Part shown: one piece after another, positions 12,838-20,889 of the stretch
Layout of the letters: each line of letters starts with the position of its first letter
Numbering within the stretch: position 1 is the stretch's first letter
Translations under genes and position numbers: made by a program
The notes under the pieces: generated by a model
Told to the model about the DNA's origin: nothing
Databases searched by the model: none
The model's input: only the letters and a program-made list of their open reading frames with translations
Source of the DNA: Deltaproteobacteria bacterium
Lineage (GTDB): Bacteria > Desulfobacterota > DSM-4660 > Desulfatiglandales > HGW-15
Assembly (NCBI GenBank): GCA_019308985.1
Contig: JAFDHB010000058.1
Coordinates: 1-21,289, forward strand
Direction of reading: 5' to 3'
Length of the DNA stretch: 21,289 nt

Positions 12838-13197
12838 TAGGGTCGTGGGCATTAGGGTCGGACTATGCTAACTGGCTGGTTATAAATCCAAATGAACTGA
12901 AAAAGGCCCTATTTTGGGCCATAAAATGTCTATTTTGGCACCAAAAAGGGCCTTTTAAGGAAGAAGTCAAGATAAGGACAAGATGCCAATAGGGGCGAAC
13001 AGGGACTACATGCCGGGCTCTTACAATGCTGTTTTTGGGGTCGAAAACAGCCCTGCAAGCTCCCAGAACGGCCATTTCCGGGAATATATTGATTGAAAAT
13101 CAAACACATAGCTTGGTGCGACCCTAGTTCAGTACCTAGTTCAGTAGTTCAGGGTGCCTCTCTATTGAGGCAGACTCAGGGGAGAGTGCACTTTAAG
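12838..13197. other. Non-coding region upstream of pstC with nested inverted and tandem repeats
   Basis: No gene is seen in 360 bp. GCATTAGGGTCG occurs twice (12834-12845, 12849-12860). AAAAGGCCC (12901-12909) can pair with GGGCC (12916-12920) or with GGGCCTTTT (12948-12956), two mutually exclusive stems. CTGTTTT/AAAACAG (13029-13035, 13044-13050) forms a hairpin. CCTAGTTCAGTA is a perfect tandem duplicate (13123-13134, 13135-13146). TGCCTC/GAGGCA (13155-13172) is a hairpin just before the pstC ribosome binding site. No clear Pho box or pstS is found. Confidence 0.55.
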
Positions 13198-14975: not shown

Positions 14976-15736
14976 AGCAGAAAAAGGCAAAGATGGCTGT
15001 TGAAAATCTCAATCTTTTCTATGGTGAAAAGCAAGCACTGGAGCGAGTGACACTTGAGTTTCGTCCAAACCAGGTCACAGCCCTAATAGGGCCTTCAGGG
15101 TGTGGAAAGAGCACTCTTCTTCGGTGCCTCAACCGGATGAATGATCTGATCCCCGGTATCCGGGTGGAAGGCCGCGTCCTAGTAGATGACCAAGATATCT
15201 ACCATCCTTCGGTGGATGTAGTGACATTGAGGCGGGGGGTGGGGATGGTTTTTCAGAAGCCCAACCCTTTTCCCAAGACGGTCTTTGAAAACGTGGCATA
15301 TGGTCTGCGGGTAAACGGCGTTAGGGACAAAGCGGAGATAGCGGAACGGGTTGAAAAGGCCTTAAGGCAATCCGCCCTGTGGGAGGAGGTAAAAGACAGG
15401 CTTGGCGATTCGGCATTGAAGCTATCAGGTGGGCAACAGCAACGCCTCTGTATAGCGCGTGCCTTGGCGGTCGAGCCGGAAGTGCTGTTGATGGATGAGC
15501 CCTGCTCGGCGCTTGACCCCATTGCCACTCAGAAAATCGAGGAGCTCATCCACGACTTGAGAAAATCATATACTATCATTATCGTGACTCACAACATGCA
15601 GCAGGCGGCGAGAGTGTCTCAAGCTACTGCCTTTCTTTACCTTGGGAGACTGATAGAGGTGGGTTTGACAGACGCAGTGTTCACGCGGCCTAAGCAGAAA
15701 CAGACAGAAGACTACATCACTGGTCGGTTCGGATAG
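14972..15736 (+). CDS. pstB: Phosphate ABC transporter ATPase PstB
   Basis: 254 aa, the ATP-hydrolysing subunit. Walker [10 protein letters not shown] (40-48), Q-loop VFQKPNPFP (93-101), signature LSGGQQQRL (151-159), Walker B VLLMDEP (171-177) and switch His207 are all present, so it should be active. It overlaps pstA by 4 bp. A second in-frame Met at residue 8 is a possible alternative start. Confidence 0.97.
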
Positions 15737-16559: not shown

Positions 16560-16865
16560 CTATTCGCTATACTCGCTACTCGCGGCTTCCCTGATATGAT
16601 TCTCCACATCGGCCGGTTGGCCATAAAGTCGATAGATATCCTCTTCATCCCAATCCAGATTGGTCGCAAATACACAATAGGTATAGCCCCAATGATCAAA
16701 AAGAGAGGTTTGCGCCCTATCGACATCATCTCTCCATCGTACTACCACCACCCGTCTGGCCCTGGCCCAGCCACTCCTCTGAAACAGGAAGCTCGAAAAC
16801 TCTATCTCGCCTCCCTCAGTCACCCTCTTGGTGTACATGCCCTCAGCCAGAGAAGCAGCGTAAGT
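16560..16865 (-). pseudogene. IS1380-type DDE transposase remnant
   Basis: A fragment of about 100 codons reading toward lower coordinates. It shows the C-terminal hallmarks of group 1 DDE transposases: FSSFLFQRSGWARARRVVVV, HWGYTYCVFATNLDWDEEDI and LYGQPADVENHIRE (the final motif with the catalytic Glu). Both ends are lost. Upstream there is an in-frame stop near 16868, and downstream the frame runs into a short TCGCTA-rich repeat beside the 84-bp element. Not functional. Confidence 0.7.
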
Positions 16866-16872
16866 TTATGAC

Positions 16873-16927
16873 TTTTTTCACAACGTGTGAAAAAAGGCTT
16901 GACAAAAGGAAAGGTTTTTTCTATATT
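16873..16927 (+). promoter_or_regulatory. Strong sigma-70 promoter with upstream palindrome
   Basis: -35 TTGACA (16899-16904), a 17-bp spacer and -10 TATATT (16922-16927) make this the best promoter in the window; transcription should begin near 16934. Just upstream, TTTTTTCACA (16873-16882) and TGTGAAAAAA (16886-16895) are perfect 10-bp arms with a 3-bp spacer, suitable for a dimeric regulator. It drives the structured leader and possibly the FmdE cluster. Confidence 0.8.
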
Positions 16928-16933
16928 GCGTTG

Positions 16934-17036
16934 AAACTGCTCAAGAAGAGCAAGCGGTCTTTACTGGGAGTTTGAGAACTTAACAAGGGCCAAGAAGGCA
17001 CTGCCACTTAGAAGAGTGGGCCTTCTTGGCTTTTTT
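16934..17036 (+). ncRNA. Candidate small RNA or attenuator leader upstream of the FmdE cluster
   Basis: About 103 nt between the predicted transcript start and the terminator, with no ORF. The 5' part can fold as a small three-way junction: P1 AAACT/AGTTT (16934-16938, 16969-16973), P2 GCTC/GAGC (16939-16942, 16948-16951), and P3 CGGT/ACTG with one G-U pair (16955-16958, 16963-16966). A 15-nt linker joins it to the terminator hairpin. It could be an independent sRNA or a leader controlling readthrough into the gene at 17103. No match to a riboswitch class is recognised. Confidence 0.55.
16989..17036 (+). terminator. Strong intrinsic terminator before the FmdE gene
   Basis: GCCAAGAAGGC (16989-16999) pairs perfectly with GCCTTCTTGGC (17020-17030). 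An inner stem CCACT/AGTGG (17004-17008, 17015-17019) extends the hairpin past a 4-nt bulge. Six T follow, then GTTTT. Confidence 0.9.
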
Positions 17037-17102
17037 GTTTTGAGATTTTAAAGGAAAACGGGAATCCAGGAGGCAGGAGATGGGCTTCCAAAAAGGGGAA
17101 TC

Positions 17103-18143
17103 ATGAGAAAGGGTGTGCAAATCTTCTTGATTGTAATACTGGTCTTTGGCATCCCAAGCGTTATCTGGGCAAGTGATCTAGGGCCTTCGATAGCGGGTGG
17201 TCTGAAAGAGCTGAAAATTTCGAAGGGAAGCCCCAACCTTCTCGCACTCACCAATGCGAGTTACGTAAATGTGGGCGGCAGCGCCGGTGTGAGATATGTG
17301 GATCTGATCCAGGACATAACAGGATGTTCCGTTGGGAGGCGTAACCTTTTATTCTTTCACCGCCCCGTTACATACCCATTGAAGGTGGCGCTTTTCCGGA
17401 AGGACACTAAGGATTGTGTTGTCATTACCTATGATGGAAAAGACACTAAAGTAGTGAAGCTCAATGTGGACGGTCAAAAGGCCACTGCTCCACAATATTG
17501 GCAGGAAATAGAGCGTACCCTTGGGGCATCCGACGGCTTCAGCATTGTTACCATCGCCAATTCATGGGCCATGAGTGTCCCTTATGATTTCCTCAAGTGC
17601 TGTGAATTTCACAACCATCTTTGTCCAGGCCTTACCTCCGGCTATTTCATTGTAAAGGTAATTCAGAAAAGGTATCCATTGAAGAAGGGAGAGAAATATA
17701 TATTCATTGCCTGTCCCCCCTGGTGTAAGGATGATGCCATACAGGTCGTTTTAGACCTCACCCCGGGCAAGAGGAGCCTCTTTGTAAAACAGCTTACAGA
17801 TCCCCAGAAGAGGGGTTGTGCAGCCGCAAACGTAGCAGGGATCCTGGTGATATGGAGGGCAAAAGAAAAGAAAGGCAGGGGAGTAGTCTTTCAGTTTGAC
17901 TGGGAAAGGGCCTGTGAGGTCTCGGGGGTGAAGAGAAAGGACTTCAGACCAAGGGGAGGGAAAAAGAACCCTGTCTTCTGGACCACCAGGGTGAAGTGTA
18001 ACTGGGGGCTTATCCCATATTTGAAAAGGCCGGAGGAATTTGTGAGGGTGGTAAAGGAGTTTGAGGTAAGCCTTGAAAGGCTCACGAAGCTCACAATAGC
18101 AGGGGTGAACCCGTATGAGGAGATAGACTTTGTGGTAAAATAA
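17103..18143 (+). CDS. Exported FmdE-family protein
   Basis: 346 aa with a Sec signal peptide (hydrophobic residues about 6-22, likely cleavage after IWA near residue 23), so it acts outside the cytoplasm. An N-terminal domain of unknown role (about 30-150) is followed by an FmdE domain whose metal-site motif CCEFHNHLCPG occupies residues 166-176, with further ligand candidates in ACPPWCKDDAIQ. FmdE was first seen as the zinc-binding subunit E of formylmethanofuran dehydrogenase operons, but most bacterial members are orphan proteins of unknown function. No formylmethanofuran dehydrogenase gene is nearby. The start follows AAGGGGAATC. It leads a same-strand cluster with a second FmdE-like protein. 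Confidence 0.85.
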   Translation: MRKGVQIFLIVILVFGIPSVIWASDLGPSIAGGLKELKISKGSPNLLALTNASYVNVGGSAGVRYVDLIQDITGCSVGRRNLLFFHRPVTYPLKVALFRKDTKDCVVITYDGKDTKVVKLNVDGQKATAPQYWQEIERTLGASDGFSIVTIANSWAMSVPYDFLKCCEFHNHLCPGLTSGYFIVKVIQKRYPLKKGEKYIFIACPPWCKDDAIQVVLDLTPGKRSLFVKQLTDPQKRGCAAANVAGILVIWRAKEKKGRGVVFQFDWERACEVSGVKRKDFRPRGGKKNPVFWTTRVKCNWGLIPYLKRPEEFVRVVKEFEVSLERLTKLTIAGVNPYEEIDFVVK

Positions 18144-18159
18144 GAAAGGAGGAGAAGAT

Positions 18160-18333
18160 ATGTGTGCACCGATTAGTGTAACGACAGGAGGAACAATAGC
18201 AGGCTGTAATGGTATTTGCGCCGCTCTCCCTTCGATCATGGCATCATTGAGTCTTCTGGGCGTGTTGATACTGAACTTTAAGACCTTGCTGGGCAAATTC
18301 CTCCCATTCAAACCAAGGCTGATGAACTCGTAA
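18160..18333 (+). CDS. Small Cys-containing membrane peptide, 57 aa, unknown function
   Basis: It begins 16 bp after the FmdE stop, behind AAAGGAGGAG with ideal spacing (7 nt from AGGAGG to the ATG), one of the best ribosome binding sites in the window. The peptide starts MCAPISVTTGG, has cysteines at 2, 16 and 20 (AGCNGIC), one hydrophobic helix (about 21-40) and a basic tail (KTLLGKFLPFKPR). It could be a small membrane subunit, or a substrate of the radical SAM enzyme encoded about 1.1 kb downstream. The last residues (LMNS) and the stop codon coincide with the start of a repeat-like element, so the C-terminus may have been altered. No family is recognised. Confidence 0.65.
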   Translation: MCAPISVTTGGTIAGCNGICAALPSIMASLSLLGVLILNFKTLLGKFLPFKPRLMNS

Positions 18334-18435
18334 AAAGTCAAAATTGAGATGGCAAAGTAAAAAGCTTCAAGTTCAAGGCGCGCAAATCTCGTGTGATGAG
18401 GCGTACTTACCGTACGCCGCAATCACAACGAGATT
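18321..18435. repeat. Truncated palindromic element with 51-nt hairpin
   Basis: GATGAACTCGTAAAAAGTC (18321-18339) starts a stretch that resembles repeats I associate with deltaproteobacterial genomes (memory, not checked). It ends in a long hairpin: AATCTCGTGTGAT (18385-18397) pairs with ATCACAACGAGATT (18422-18435) with one bulged A, enclosing GGCGTAC/GTACGCC (18400-18406, 18412-18418) around loop TTACC. The matching right arm of the outer part is absent. Confidence 0.6.
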
Positions 18436-18449
18436 CGGGCAAAAGTTGT

Positions 18450-18494
18450 TTGATCTCCCCTGCTCGTGATAAGGGGCTTGGAGTTTGACCACCC
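18450..18494 (+). repeat. 45-bp direct repeat, copy A
   Basis: 32 of 45 positions match 19393-19437, including an identical 14-nt core GCTCGTGATAAGGG. It sits about 130 bp upstream of the second FmdE-like gene. Function unknown. Confidence 0.55.
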
Positions 18495-18624
18495 TTGTAT
18501 TGCTTATAGTGCGCAAAGCAGAGGATTATATTTCCACCCTGGAGGTGTTCGAGTTCGGAAATCAAGGGTCGGTGAAAAGAAAATGACTGTGGCCAAAGAT
18601 AATAAAGAAAGGAGTGAGTTTGAA

Positions 18625-19296
18625 ATGCAGGGTGTAAAAAGCGTCGCTTTATTTGCATTATTGATCGTGCTCACATTGCTTTGTTTTGTTGGTTGGGCCG
18701 GTCAACTACCGAGCCAAGGTAAGTCTCGGCTTTTGTGCTTCAAACACGGACTACCCCTAGGCGATGGGATTTATATTCTGGAGATTGAAGACTTGATTCA
18801 CAAGGGGGTGATTGAAAAATATGGCAGAGAGGAGTTTGAAGCCTCTATCCTCACCCATGAGATTCATCGGCATATTGGTGCCTATACTCTTATTGGGACC
18901 AAAATGGGAATCTACGCTATGGAACTCTTGAATGCTCCAGTGAAGAAAATGAAGATAGTCTCTGAAGCTGGGGGCGGGAAATATCCAGTGAGGTGCATAA
19001 ACGATGGTATAATGGTTTCTACCCTGTGCTCCTATGCATGGGGAGCGCTAACAGTTGATACCACAAAAGGCAATTATGCTGCCACCTTCAGTTATAATGG
19101 CAAGACCGTCCGCCTTGAGTTAAAGCAACAGTACAAATCCGAATTGGAAGCCAAAATTGATGATGCCGTGTTAAAACATAAAAAGGAAGGGAAATTTACC
19201 CCGCAGTACTGGGCGGAGGTTAAGAAGTTAGCATGGTGGATATGGCTTGAGTGGGATAGAAATGTCATTTTTGATGTCCGGTGGATTCAACGGTAG
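18625..19296 (+). CDS. Second exported FmdE-like protein
   Basis: 223 aa. The ATG at 18625 follows AAAGGAG with 10-nt spacing and gives a clean signal peptide (hydrophobic about 7-25, then GWAGQLPS); longer in-frame versions from 18583 or 18466 lack such a signal. The body resembles the FmdE-fold domain with the His-rich motif THEIHRHIGAY (H78, H81, H83), then AMELL, VSEAGG, and CINDGIMVSTLCSYAWGAL (C124, D127). The His pair equals the HNH of the upstream FmdE protein, but the Cys-Pro-Gly after it is replaced by Ile-Gly. It is probably periplasmic. Reaction and ligand are unknown. Confidence 0.75.
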   Translation: MQGVKSVALFALLIVLTLLCFVGWAGQLPSQGKSRLLCFKHGLPLGDGIYILEIEDLIHKGVIEKYGREEFEASILTHEIHRHIGAYTLIGTKMGIYAMELLNAPVKKMKIVSEAGGGKYPVRCINDGIMVSTLCSYAWGALTVDTTKGNYAATFSYNGKTVRLELKQQYKSELEAKIDDAVLKHKKEGKFTPQYWAEVKKLAWWIWLEWDRNVIFDVRWIQR

Positions 19297-19392
19297 ATTT
19301 TGTTCTTTGCTTCACTTGATGTTACGTCCAAACCTTGGCAAGAATCTGAGAATACCCTCCATGGGTCTGGTTCTTCTTCGGTTAAAGGTGGC

Positions 19393-19437
19393 TTGATTTC
19401 CTGCGCTCGTGATAAGGGTCCGGAGATCTGGCCACCT
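19393..19437 (+). repeat. 45-bp direct repeat, copy B
   Basis: Partner of 18450-18494. It sits about 40 bp before the radical SAM start. In one frame both copies would read LIS-x-ARDKG...PP, with a TGA in copy A where copy B has TGG. Confidence 0.55.
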
Positions 19438-19477
19438 TTTTGGCAGGATGAAGGACTGGCAGGTGAGCGTGTCCAAG

Positions 19478-20314
19478 ATGTTCCGTAAAAGGACCCTTCA
19501 GGTTGAGGTCACAACATTTTGCAACCTCGATTGCTCCATATGTTTGAGGGGAAGGGTGGATAGACCCAACAGAATGCTTTCCTTTACCGATTTTAGACGT
19601 ATATTCGATCCCTCTATCTGCAATTACGTAGGGTTACATGGGTGGGGGGAGCCTTTGCTCAACCCGGAGCTCTTTGAAATGATAGCCTATGCCAGGTCAC
19701 ACAGAGTTGTCGTCAACCTGACTACAAACGGGACCTTACTTCGGGAGAGAGGGGAAGAGATACTGCGCAGCGGTTTAGAAGAGATCGCATTTGGAGTATA
19801 TGATCCGAAACTACTACTGAATTGCTTGCCAGCTATCCAATGGTTCATTCGAGAAAGAAACAAAAGAGGTTTGAAGACACCAAGAACCTATCTTGATGTC
19901 ACCCTTCATCAGGGCACCCGCAACTCCATCAGGGACTTGGTCCAACTGGCTTCGAAGGCAGGCATTGAAGCAGTAATTGTTCACAGGCTTTTCGACCTGT
20001 ATGGCGTGGGATCAGTGGCGAAATGTGTTTCAGCCGACGACGAAAGAGAACTTTTCGCCCAATTAAGGGAGGTAGCTCGATCCTCCAAGATAAAACTATA
20101 TCTCCCTGTGAAACATTCCTATCCGTGCCGAATCGTGAGGCGAAGCGTTTTCGTGACCGTTGAGGGAAACATCACACCCTGCACCTACCTTATCGAAGAG
20201 CACCTGGGAAGTGCCGTTGAACAGGGCGTAGGAAAGGCCCTCAAATCCACACAATACAAAGGCTTTCTCAAGAGGATGAAAGATCACCCTGTGTGCTCCA
20301 AGTGCAGGTGGTAA
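19478..20314 (+). CDS. Radical SAM enzyme with short twitch/SPASM-like C-terminus
   Basis: 278 aa. The radical SAM cluster motif CNLDCSIC gives C15, C19 and C22. SAM-binding features follow: HGWGEPLLNPELFE (GGEP-like motif) and NLTTNGTLL. Four C-terminal cysteines (C217, C235 in ITPCTYL, C273 and C276 in VCSKC) could hold one auxiliary 4Fe-4S cluster, as in twitch/SPASM enzymes that modify peptides or build cofactors. The protein ends two residues after the last Cys, shorter than classic SPASM enzymes, and has no recognisable peptide-recognition (PqqD-like) domain. The start at 19478 is chosen by homology (MFRKRTLQVEVTTFCN) and a modest AGGTGAG; 19448 is an alternative. It is followed 2 bp later by a membrane protein gene. 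Confidence 0.85.
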   Translation: MFRKRTLQVEVTTFCNLDCSICLRGRVDRPNRMLSFTDFRRIFDPSICNYVGLHGWGEPLLNPELFEMIAYARSHRVVVNLTTNGTLLRERGEEILRSGLEEIAFGVYDPKLLLNCLPAIQWFIRERNKRGLKTPRTYLDVTLHQGTRNSIRDLVQLASKAGIEAVIVHRLFDLYGVGSVAKCVSADDERELFAQLREVARSSKIKLYLPVKHSYPCRIVRRSVFVTVEGNITPCTYLIEEHLGSAVEQGVGKALKSTQYKGFLKRMKDHPVCSKCRW

Positions 20315-20316
20315 GC

Positions 20317-20889
20317 ATGAGATATTCCTACTTTACATTTGGTGAGTGGGTCTTCATCCTTCTCTTTGCGCTTTGCGGTGCGCTGATGAACGTGTTCTTT
20401 CCCACCAAAGAATTCCTGGCGGGATTGGAAATGACGGAACCTGTCAAGGGGATGAGCCTTTTTGGCGGCTTCTTCTTTGTAATGTGGGTCTACCTTGGGC
20501 GAAGGGTTACGCAAAAAAGATACGGCGGACTGGCAACGGCTATACTTTTAGTATCCTTTTGCCTTTTTTTGAGCCCGTGGTATGGTGTCATCTCTCCTTG
20601 GTGGTTTAGCTTCTATGGTCTTGTCGCCCTTTTCGTTTGTGGTACTTGGATAGAGCTTTCCTATGAAAGCTGGGACTGGCTCGGCGGTGGCCTTGCCAAT
20701 CTTTTCTGCCTCGGGATTACCTGGCTTGCATTTGGCTTTCATCAGCAGATGTGGCCGGATGCCAGAGGTGTTCCCTTGGCCTTGACAGCCGTATTCATTT
20801 CAGGAGTTGCCGGTATCTTCTCTGCCAAGTTGATCGGCCAACTTGCCGCTGCAATCGGGCCGAAAAGTAGTTCTATATTGCCACCATAA
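20317..20889 (+). CDS. Six-helix membrane protein, possibly ECF S-component-like
   Basis: 190 aa with about six hydrophobic segments (residues roughly 8-28, 45-65, 72-95, 97-120, 128-150, 155-182) and small-residue-rich helices (FALCGALMN, GGGLANLF). Size and helix number match substrate-capturing S components of ECF vitamin/metal transporters, but no EcfA or EcfT gene is in the window and no definite family motif is seen. It starts 2 bp after the radical SAM stop (TAA-GC-ATG), so the two are almost surely cotranscribed. A GTG start at 20293 inside the previous gene is less likely. Its 3' end overlaps the DUF364 remnant on the other strand by 17 bp. Confidence 0.7.
   Translation: MRYSYFTFGEWVFILLFALCGALMNVFFPTKEFLAGLEMTEPVKGMSLFGGFFFVMWVYLGRRVTQKRYGGLATAILLVSFCLFLSPWYGVISPWWFSFYGLVALFVCGTWIELSYESWDWLGGGLANLFCLGITWLAFGFHQQMWPDARGVPLALTAVFISGVAGIFSAKLIGQLAAAIGPKSSSILPP

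What the first reader, a model, noticed from the sequence alone, without database searches (positions are those of the whole stretch)
16873..20889. Candidate undescribed envelope metal/cofactor or peptide-maturation cluster: two secreted FmdE-like proteins, a 57-aa peptide, a radical SAM enzyme and an ECF-S-like membrane protein
Five genes on one strand: two exported FmdE-fold proteins with different metal motifs (HNHLCPG and HRHIG), a small Cys-containing membrane peptide between them, a radical SAM enzyme with an auxiliary-cluster Cys set, and a polytopic membrane protein 2 bp downstream. A metal-linked DUF364 remnant and a zinc-ribbon gene lie beside it. Seen directly: order, signal peptides, Cys/His motifs. 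Known: FmdE members bind zinc and are mostly orphans; twitch/SPASM enzymes modify peptides or build cofactors. Inferred: they form one pathway. Gaps of 291 bp and 181 bp around the second FmdE-like gene weaken the single-operon claim.
Basis: partly seen in the sequence, partly recalled or inferred. Interest (0 to 1): 0.75.

Follow-up and report, generated by a model that had tools for sequence, protein, structure and literature searches.

The report
Radical-SAM membrane-peptide operon for metal uptake
A tiny membrane peptide starting Met-Cys-Ala-Pro travels with its own radical SAM enzyme, an exported metal-binding protein and a transporter-like protein through distant bacteria and archaea, probably as a new peptide-based way of taking up nickel or another metal.

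Summary
Four of the five genes form a real, conserved module: exported FmdE1 (17103-18143), a 57-aa one-helix peptide "p57" (18160-18333), a radical SAM/SPASM enzyme (19478-20314) and a membrane protein with an ECF S-component fold (20317-20889). The order recurs in Deltaproteobacteria, Dehalococcoidia and several archaeal lineages. p57 is the new part: a peptide family with invariant Met1-Cys2, near-invariant Pro4 and an N-out charge pattern, under purifying selection. It tracks the radical SAM subfamily (7 of 297 genomes of the window's probable phylum have the enzyme, all 7 have p57), also in a second arrangement with a TPR protein and no ECF-S protein. The second FmdE gene is not conserved there; it lies between imperfect direct repeats. 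The operon's leader holds an undescribed tandem-hairpin attenuator-like RNA; relatives of it precede CbiM, NikA-like, DUF4198, CooT, FecCD, FmdE and TonB-plug genes (14 of 24 ORFs), tying the operon to a nickel/cobalt-type uptake regulon. Best reading: the enzyme matures the Cys end of p57, which then handles metal at the membrane. The modification and the metal are inferred, not shown.

The parts
16899..16927 (+). sigma-70-like promoter TTGACA-17-TATATT
   Evidence: 11 of 12 consensus positions (four such sites found in the region against 4.4 in shuffles, so not evidence alone); TTGACAAAAG also in L001 and L003 upstream of the same gene
16934..17041 (+). structured leader: two hairpins with C[ANGAA]G loops, the second overlapping a terminator hairpin with a T run (attenuator-like)
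   Evidence: CM hits in relatives; 5 pairs changed on both sides, 0 of 500 shuffles reach the covariation score, 8 related sequences; no Rfam match at gathering score
17103..18143 (+). FmdE1: exported protein (by eye), N-terminal domain (about 20-155) plus C-terminal FmdE domain
18160..18333 (+). p57: 57-aa one-helix membrane peptide MCAPISV..., putative substrate of the radical SAM enzyme
   Evidence: 41 family ORFs in 31 of 79 loci; M1-C2 invariant, P4 at least 90% in 38; dN/dS 0.21 and 0.15 for the two pairs that include the window
18625..19296 (+). FmdE2: second exported (by eye) FmdE-domain protein (HRHIG); open frame from 18466; not conserved in the module
   Evidence: PF02663 5.6e-15; absent between p57 and rSAM in relatives
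18434..18496 (+). left copy of imperfect direct repeat flanking FmdE2
   Evidence: 71% identical to 19377-19439
19377..19439 (+). right copy of imperfect direct repeat flanking FmdE2
19478..20314 (+). radical SAM enzyme (278 aa), CxxxCxxC plus four C-terminal Cys ending CSKCRW-stop
   Evidence: PF04055 4.6e-10, PF13186 SPASM 6e-8; alignment A5; one clade with its relatives, support 99
20317..20889 (+). 190-aa membrane protein, ECF S-component fold

Best explanation
This is a metal-acquisition operon built around a small ribosomally made membrane peptide and its dedicated radical SAM enzyme. Likely course: (1) a leader RNA of a nickel/cobalt-type uptake regulon lets transcription through when the metal is short (inferred from the genes it precedes). 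(2) p57 is made and the radical SAM/SPASM enzyme modifies its N-terminal M-C-x-P-[IV]-x-V segment, most simply at Cys2, the only Cys in most archaeal members (inferred). A thioether from Cys2 to a nearby residue across Pro4 is my guess. (3) p57 sits in the membrane with this end outside and its basic end inside (inferred from charges). (4) There the matured Cys end binds or passes on a metal or metal complex together with the exported partner encoded next to it: FmdE1 in this operon, a TPR protein in others. (5) The ECF-S-like protein is the membrane receptor for what is passed on, in the FmdE1 version. Shown by computation: conservation, linkage, fold, coding of p57, and the leader RNA's gene associations. 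Not shown: the modification, the metal, transport.
For: Conserved FmdE1-p57-rSAM-membrane operon across distant bacteria and archaea. p57 and the enzyme co-occur: in genomes drawn from the phylum of G002 (Desulfobacterota by its record title) the enzyme is in 7 of 297, p57 in 8 of 297, both in 7 (Fisher 2e-13, uncorrected for kinship; four of the seven genomes, G002, G006, G007 and G282, had supplied sequences to the profiles, and the other three, G269, G394 and G446, also have both). p57 lies beside the enzyme in 7 of 8 loci of the subfamily there (L124-L130 and L097; the eighth is cut by its contig end) against 0 of 23 loci of the next-best radical SAM enzymes. p57 and rSAM overlap by 4 bp in both copies of G394. 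One or few enzymes but up to six p57 genes per genome, many directly after a TPR or FmdE1 gene, as expected for substrates. Charge bias C-side over N-side in 38 of 38. Metal context: TonB receptors 9 of 98 bacterial neighbour ORFs, FUR 3, DUF4198 3, ExbD 2; DUF4198 4, CbiM 3, CbiQ 3, FecCD 2 of 136 archaeal ones. Leader RNA relatives precede CbiM 5, SBP_bac_5 (NikA-like) 3, DUF4198 2, FecCD 1, FmdE 1, CooT 1, TonB plug 1 of 24 ORFs.
Against: No direct evidence that p57 is modified. No leader-peptide recognition domain or protease was found beside it. Type B loci point to iron/haem rather than nickel: FeoA/FeoB-like genes by eye, TonB receptors and the haem-degrading rSAM HutW. FmdE1 occurs without a p57 ORF in 48 of the 79 loci, some on short contigs. 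The leader RNA has no convincing match at the archaeal modules (best L040, E 0.4). Three of the five CbiM genes behind leader relatives (L210, L213, L222) are near copies, so not independent. The profiles were made partly from genomes later scored. Most genomes are MAGs, and their completeness is not told.
Confidence: 0.5

Rival explanations
1. p57 is an unmodified structural subunit: a one-helix anchor or docking helix for FmdE1 or the TPR protein. The radical SAM enzyme acts on something else, for example the exported protein or a small molecule that the ECF-S protein then takes up.
For: Several p57 per genome, many beside an exported partner; the conserved N at the helix end (A3) and the small-residue-rich N-terminus could be packing motifs.
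Against: p57 follows the enzyme even where the partner protein is of another family (FmdE1 or TPR), and the most conserved residues are Met1-Cys2-x-Pro4, not the helix.
Confidence: 0.2
2. p57 is the detached first helix of a CbiM/NikM-like receptor: its N-terminal M-C replaces the M-H metal ligand of CbiM, and the 190-aa protein is the remaining six-helix core.
For: ECF S fold; same N-out topology by charge; CbiM proteins seen here begin with M-H, and their N-terminus as a metal ligand is recalled knowledge; the module adjoins CbiM-CbiQ-ABC genes in L079 (Pfam) and L074 (clustering).
Confidence: 0.12
3. p57 is the precursor of a released small cofactor or signal (as PqqA or MftA are), cut out and used by the exported partner as a redox or metal cofactor.
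For: SPASM enzyme with a dedicated peptide; conserved heptapeptide, mostly MC[AV]P[IV][SAT]V.
Against: No protease or further biosynthetic gene recurs among the 25 commonest families listed (rarer families are not shown there); the conserved end is at the N-terminus next to a membrane helix; several p57 per genome.
Confidence: 0.1
4. The genes are neighbours in a loose metal-envelope region without a joint function.
For: Gaps around FmdE2 in the window; FmdE1 is common without the rest.
Against: Same order in bacteria and archaea, co-occurrence in evenly drawn genome samples and overlapping stop/start codons of p57 and rSAM.
Confidence: 0.05

Closest known systems
Radical SAM/SPASM peptide-maturation systems (RiPP type: sactipeptides, ranthipeptides, PqqA/PqqE, MftA/MftC; recalled)
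   Same: dedicated short peptide gene directly before a radical SAM enzyme with auxiliary-cluster Cys; close co-occurrence
   Different: the peptide is a membrane-spanning helix whose conserved part is the extreme N-terminus, often with one Cys; no recognition domain, protease or exporter seen; partner is an exported FmdE or TPR protein; modification untested
TIGR04317 W_rSAM_matur and TIGR04311 rSAM_Geo_metal
   Same: nearest NCBIfam models of the enzyme (97.3 and 78.6 bits)
   Different: far below the curated cut-offs (380 and 400 bits); 23 loci of the next-best enzymes in the phylum sample carry no p57
ECF S-components, including CbiM/NikM
   Different: no Pfam or NCBIfam match; no M-H start; comes with p57 and rSAM
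FmdE family PF02663 (2glz)
   Same: C-terminal domain fold and HxHxCPG motif
   Different: exported, with an extra N-terminal domain without a clear structural match, operon with rSAM and p57
Metal-binding RiPPs (methanobactin, bufferins)
   Same: ribosomal peptides in metal handling (bufferin abstract start seen; methanobactin recalled)
   Different: those are for copper and bufferins are made by MNIO enzymes; here radical SAM, membrane helix, nickel-type context
ANTAR-controlled dual-hairpin leaders
   Same: two small hairpins, exclusive with a terminator (passages of PMC3369931)
   Different: loops here are 5-nt ANGAA closed by C-G, not 6-nt with A1 and G4

Membership tests
Radical SAM RiPP (peptide plus maturase) | short ORF that is truly coding and conserved | tested here: met
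   41 ORFs in 31 loci; dN/dS 0.13-0.60 in 10 of 11 pairs computed, the eleventh saturated
Radical SAM RiPP (peptide plus maturase) | peptide gene tied to the maturase gene | tested here: met
   7 of 297 genomes have the enzyme, all with p57 (4 of the 7 supplied profile sequences); adjacency 7 of 8 loci against 0 of 23 controls
Radical SAM RiPP (peptide plus maturase) | the enzyme modifies the peptide | not testable with these tools
   needs co-expression and mass spectrometry
Radical SAM RiPP (peptide plus maturase) | RiPP recognition element or leader peptide with cleavage | tested here: inconclusive
   no extra domain before the radical SAM core in A5; the conserved part is the N-terminus itself, so no classical leader; no structure search for such a domain was made
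TIGR04317 / TIGR04311 maturases | score above curated cut-off | tested here: not met
   97.3 of 380 and 78.6 of 400 bits
ECF S-component | six-helix S-component fold | tested here: met
ECF S-component | works with EcfT and EcfA | tested here: inconclusive
   CbiQ and ABC genes adjoin in L079 and, by clustering, L074
CbiM/NikM | PF01891 profile match | tested here: not met
   no Pfam family for the window protein at E<=1
FmdE (PF02663) | profile above gathering score | tested here: met
   FmdE1 76.4 and FmdE2 56.0 bits against 22.9
ANTAR target RNA | two hairpins with 6-nt loops, A at 1 and G at 4 | tested here: not met
   loops read as ANGAA, 5 nt with C-G closing pair, in the instances listed; definition
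Known Rfam cis-regulatory RNA | match at gathering score | tested here: not met
   none in window or in 10 loci; best sub-threshold bit score in the window's leader region RF04312, 22.4 of 59 bits

The most novel reading that the evidence does not exclude
p57 is the first ribosomally made, radical-SAM-matured peptide dedicated to nickel (or cobalt): a membrane-tethered metal ligand whose modified N-terminal Cys hands the metal from an exported FmdE protein to an ECF receptor, shared by anaerobic bacteria and methane-oxidising archaea, and in bacteria switched by a new class of metal-responsive tandem-hairpin leader RNA.
Probability: 0.22. Interest if true: 0.92.

Novelty: new variant of a known kind. 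Interest (0 to 1): 0.78.

Why it matters
Methane-oxidising archaea and sulfate reducers need much nickel for methyl-coenzyme M reductase, CO dehydrogenase and hydrogenases (established knowledge, recalled), and how they win it in sulfidic sediments is poorly known. The finding gives a defined peptide, enzyme, receptor and regulatory RNA to test. It would add a membrane-spanning peptide to the substrates of radical SAM maturases, and it gives a function-linked home to part of the largely orphan FmdE family. The leader RNA alone is a candidate new metal-responsive regulator in Desulfobacterota.

Tried and rejected
The five-gene claim: FmdE2 rejected as a core part. 'One enzyme serves p57s in trans in G269' was first suspected from p57 and rSAM on separate contigs; both lie at contig ends (C5 start, C16 end), so at least the FmdE1-linked pair is probably one operon split by assembly. 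The TPR-linked p57 of G269 (C33) still has no enzyme beside it.

Split-CbiM reading: kept as a rival, weakened. Cofactor-precursor reading: kept at low weight. A known riboswitch for the leader: no Rfam match. ANTAR target: loops do not fit.

Rows dropped before counts: the archaeal neighbour scan used 136 of the 177 ORFs listed (L194, L195 and some others left out). Downstream-gene counts use 24 ORFs from 27 RNA matches (three had none), taken as the longest ORF starting within 350 bases. The control scan used 73 of 74 ORFs (one was the enzyme itself), and its output shows only the 25 commonest of 71 families, so single members of a metal family could be hidden. From the leader alignments A12 (12 sequences) and A13 (11) only 8 well-aligned ones went into model R2. 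Phylum names for the genome samples are my inference from the record titles of the centre genomes; the tool names none.
Full report
OBSERVATION. The window holds five + strand genes at the stated place: FmdE1 17103-18143, p57 18160-18333, FmdE2 (start 18625 preferred, frame open from 18466) to 19296, radical SAM 19478-20314, membrane protein 20317-20889. Pfam finds FmdE in the first and third, Radical_SAM plus SPASM in the fourth, nothing in p57 or the membrane protein. NCBIfam gives only sub-threshold relatives of the enzyme, the best being TIGR04317 (97 of 380 bits) and TIGR04311 (79 of 400). The DUF364 piece is a convergent fragment, and an IS1380 remnant lies upstream. That FmdE1 and FmdE2 are exported is read from their N-termini by eye.

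CONSERVATION. One scan of GTDB species genomes with an FmdE1 alignment gave 79 loci. In 13 of them FmdE1, p57, the enzyme and the membrane protein stand in this order on one strand (L001, L003, L004, L031, L032, L037, L042, L044, L050, L058, L060, L074, L079). L051 has the same with an extra TPR-p57 pair in between. L041, L053, L061 and L075 have p57-rSAM-membrane protein on the strand opposite to FmdE1. By record title these 18 are Deltaproteobacteria or Desulfobacteraceae, Dehalococcoidia or Dehalococcoidales, an 'Actinomycetes' MAG, Methanophagales, Methanosarcinales, Methanomicrobiales, Archaeoglobaceae, Hadesarchaea, Bathyarchaeota and Thermoprotei. All 25 loci with the enzyme (E<1e-40) hold a p57 ORF, 24 of them directly before it; in L040 the nearest is about 1.7 kb after it. 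FmdE1 without the rest is common: 54 of the 79 loci lack the enzyme at that threshold, some because contigs end.

THE PEPTIDE. Iterated profile searches found 41 p57 ORFs in 31 of 79 loci; one of them is a fragment behind a masked stretch (L044). In an alignment of 38, Met1 and Cys2 are invariant and Pro4 is at least 90% conserved; the start is mostly MC[AVST]P[IV]. One strongly hydrophobic stretch follows, often ending in N-F/Y. All 38 have a more positive C-side than N-side, hence a predicted N-out, C-in topology. Substitution ratios dN/dS are 0.13-0.60 in 10 of 11 pairs, the last being saturated, so it is coding. Bacterial members have at least two further Cys; most archaeal ones have only Cys2. 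A search of 5.8 billion proteins gave 30 relatives without Pfam domains, 'hypothetical' where named.

LINKAGE WITH THE ENZYME. In genomes drawn evenly from the phylum of G002 (Desulfobacterota by its record title), the enzyme's subfamily is in 7 of 297 at E<=2e-110, with a gap to the next hit at 5e-37. p57 is in 8 of 297, and all 7 enzyme genomes are among them. Four of the seven (G002, G006, G007, G282) carry loci that went into the profiles, so the blind part of the test is three genomes (G269, G394, G446), which all have both. p57 lies beside the enzyme in 7 of the 8 loci (L124-L130 and L097; the exception L127 is cut by the contig end), but in none of 23 loci of the next-best radical SAM enzymes. 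In the phylum of G003 (Halobacteriota by title) p57 is in 31 of 294 genomes and the membrane protein in 26, both in 25; some of these genomes also supplied profile sequences. The enzyme is in 32 of 35 genomes picked for p57 or the membrane protein, with p57 inside the fetched stretch in 27 of 30 such loci. Elsewhere the family is rare: 1 of 251 in the phylum of G001 and 1 of 200 in that of G004; in both the only hit is the genome on which the draw was centred. A quick tree puts all enzymes of the module in one clade apart from four others (support 99); the bacterial rows group together (98) next to two archaeal ones (90). Fisher values are 2e-13 and 2e-29, without correction for kinship or for the shared profile genomes.

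TWO VERSIONS. Type A is FmdE1-p57-rSAM-membrane protein. Type B is TPR protein-p57-rSAM without the membrane protein beside it (L184, L185, L189, L192, L193, and in another order L186). In both copies of G394 p57 and rSAM overlap by 4 bp; TPR and p57 overlap by 4 bp if p57 starts at its first ATG, or are 5 bp apart if it starts at the ATG of the MC motif. Eight of 16 p57 genomes tested have no membrane protein at E<=1e-4, among them type B genomes G394, G446 and G417; some may be incomplete. So p57 goes with the enzyme rather than with the membrane protein. Genomes carry one membrane protein (26 of 26) and mostly one enzyme, but up to six p57 genes, many directly after a TPR or FmdE1 gene. That is what one expects if p57s are substrates.

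METAL CONTEXT. Among 98 neighbour ORFs of bacterial p57 loci, 9 are TonB receptors, 3 FUR, 3 DUF4198, 2 ExbD, 2 TonB. Among 136 of 177 archaeal ones are 4 DUF4198, 3 CbiM, 3 CbiQ, 2 FecCD, 2 SBP_bac_5. Type B loci also hold the haem-degrading radical SAM protein HutW and, by eye, FeoA/FeoB-like genes. A paper on delta-proteobacteria describes NikM with periplasmic NikK/NikL partners and NikR sites as their nickel system (passages of PMC545781); it mentions no leader RNA in the passages shown.

THE LEADER RNA. Between a TTGACA-17-TATATT promoter (16899-16927) and FmdE1 lies a leader with two hairpins, each with a C[ANGAA]G loop. The second can instead form a terminator followed by T residues. 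The same leader stands before FmdE1 in L001, L002, L003, L031 and L197 (these and the window made model R1), and R1 then found it before TonB receptor genes directly downstream of the module in L031 (1e-15) and L196 (2e-14). Pairs covary: 5 with changes on both sides (4 of them in the first hairpin), and 0 of 500 shuffles reach the observed covariation score, for either structure; these are 8 partly close sequences. Model R2 found L002, L038 (Clostridiales, before FmdE1) and L005 (NaphS2, before FmdE1), which it was not built from, at E 2e-7, 8e-4 and 3e-3. In 287 genomes of the phylum of G002 it matched 54 at E<=0.05. E-values are per genome, so about 14 chance matches are expected at 0.05; the 26 new loci fetched have E<=4e-3, where about one is expected. 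At 27 new matches examined, 13 show both hairpins and 26 at least one. The 24 ORFs behind them include 5 CbiM (three of them near copies), 3 SBP_bac_5 (the NikA model TIGR02294 is first or second best, below its cut-off), 2 DUF4198 and one each of FecCD, FmdE, CooT and TonB plug; 10 of 24 are none of these. None of these families is among the 25 shown for 73 control ORFs. Rfam has no match. Nickel is the simplest common factor, but cobalt is not excluded.

MECHANISM AND LIMITS. I infer that the enzyme matures the Cys end of p57 inside the cell and that this end, once outside, handles a metal together with FmdE1 (or the TPR protein) and, in type A, the ECF-S-like protein. Linkage, coding, fold and regulon are shown by computation. 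Modification, topology, metal and transport are not shown. The type B context speaks for iron or haem, so the metal may differ between versions. FmdE2 is probably a local addition (flanked by a 63-nt repeat at 71% identity), though a distant FmdE-like ORF also sits inside the operon of L048, and an unidentified ORF lies at the same place in L111.

NOVELTY. Radical SAM enzyme plus dedicated peptide is a known kind of system. A membrane-spanning peptide with the conserved part at its extreme N-terminus, coupled to FmdE and ECF-S proteins and to a nickel-type regulon, is a variant that I found in no library or paper searched.

Noticed in passing
window 16899-17041; L001:159-289; L031:9651-9782, 12929-13052, 15392-15520; L196:9043-9168 (-); L205-L230: Undescribed tandem-hairpin, terminator-overlapping leader RNA with ANGAA loops, often before nickel/cobalt-type uptake genes; candidate metal-responsive attenuator or riboswitch.
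   Followed up: yes
window 18434-18496 and 19377-19439: Imperfect direct repeats (71%) flank the FmdE2 gene, which relatives lack at this place: sign of an insertion or duplication.
   Followed up: partly
window 16560-16838 (-): IS1380-family transposase remnant between the pst/phoU genes and the operon.
   Followed up: no
L001:3351-4085 and ORFs next to the membrane protein in L023, L046, L191: A CooC/MinD-like ATPase (CbiA/ParA domains in L001; the others by clustering or by eye) follows the membrane protein; CooC-type ATPases insert nickel into CO dehydrogenase (recalled), which would fit the nickel reading.
   Followed up: partly
L014:2937-5825, L034:9851-17538: Tandem arrays of FmdE1-like proteins in ANME or Methanophagales archaea, near SBP_bac_5-type transporter genes.
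   Followed up: no
L194:8640-9081, L195:6362-6784: Two divergent p57 types in opposite orientation (MCAPASV and MCTPVYV) beside one enzyme in two archaeal genomes (G730, G634).
   Followed up: no
L185:3314-4732 (-): HutW/ChuW anaerobic haem-degradation radical SAM protein beside a TPR-p57-rSAM unit and a TonB receptor: links the second version to haem or iron.
   Followed up: partly
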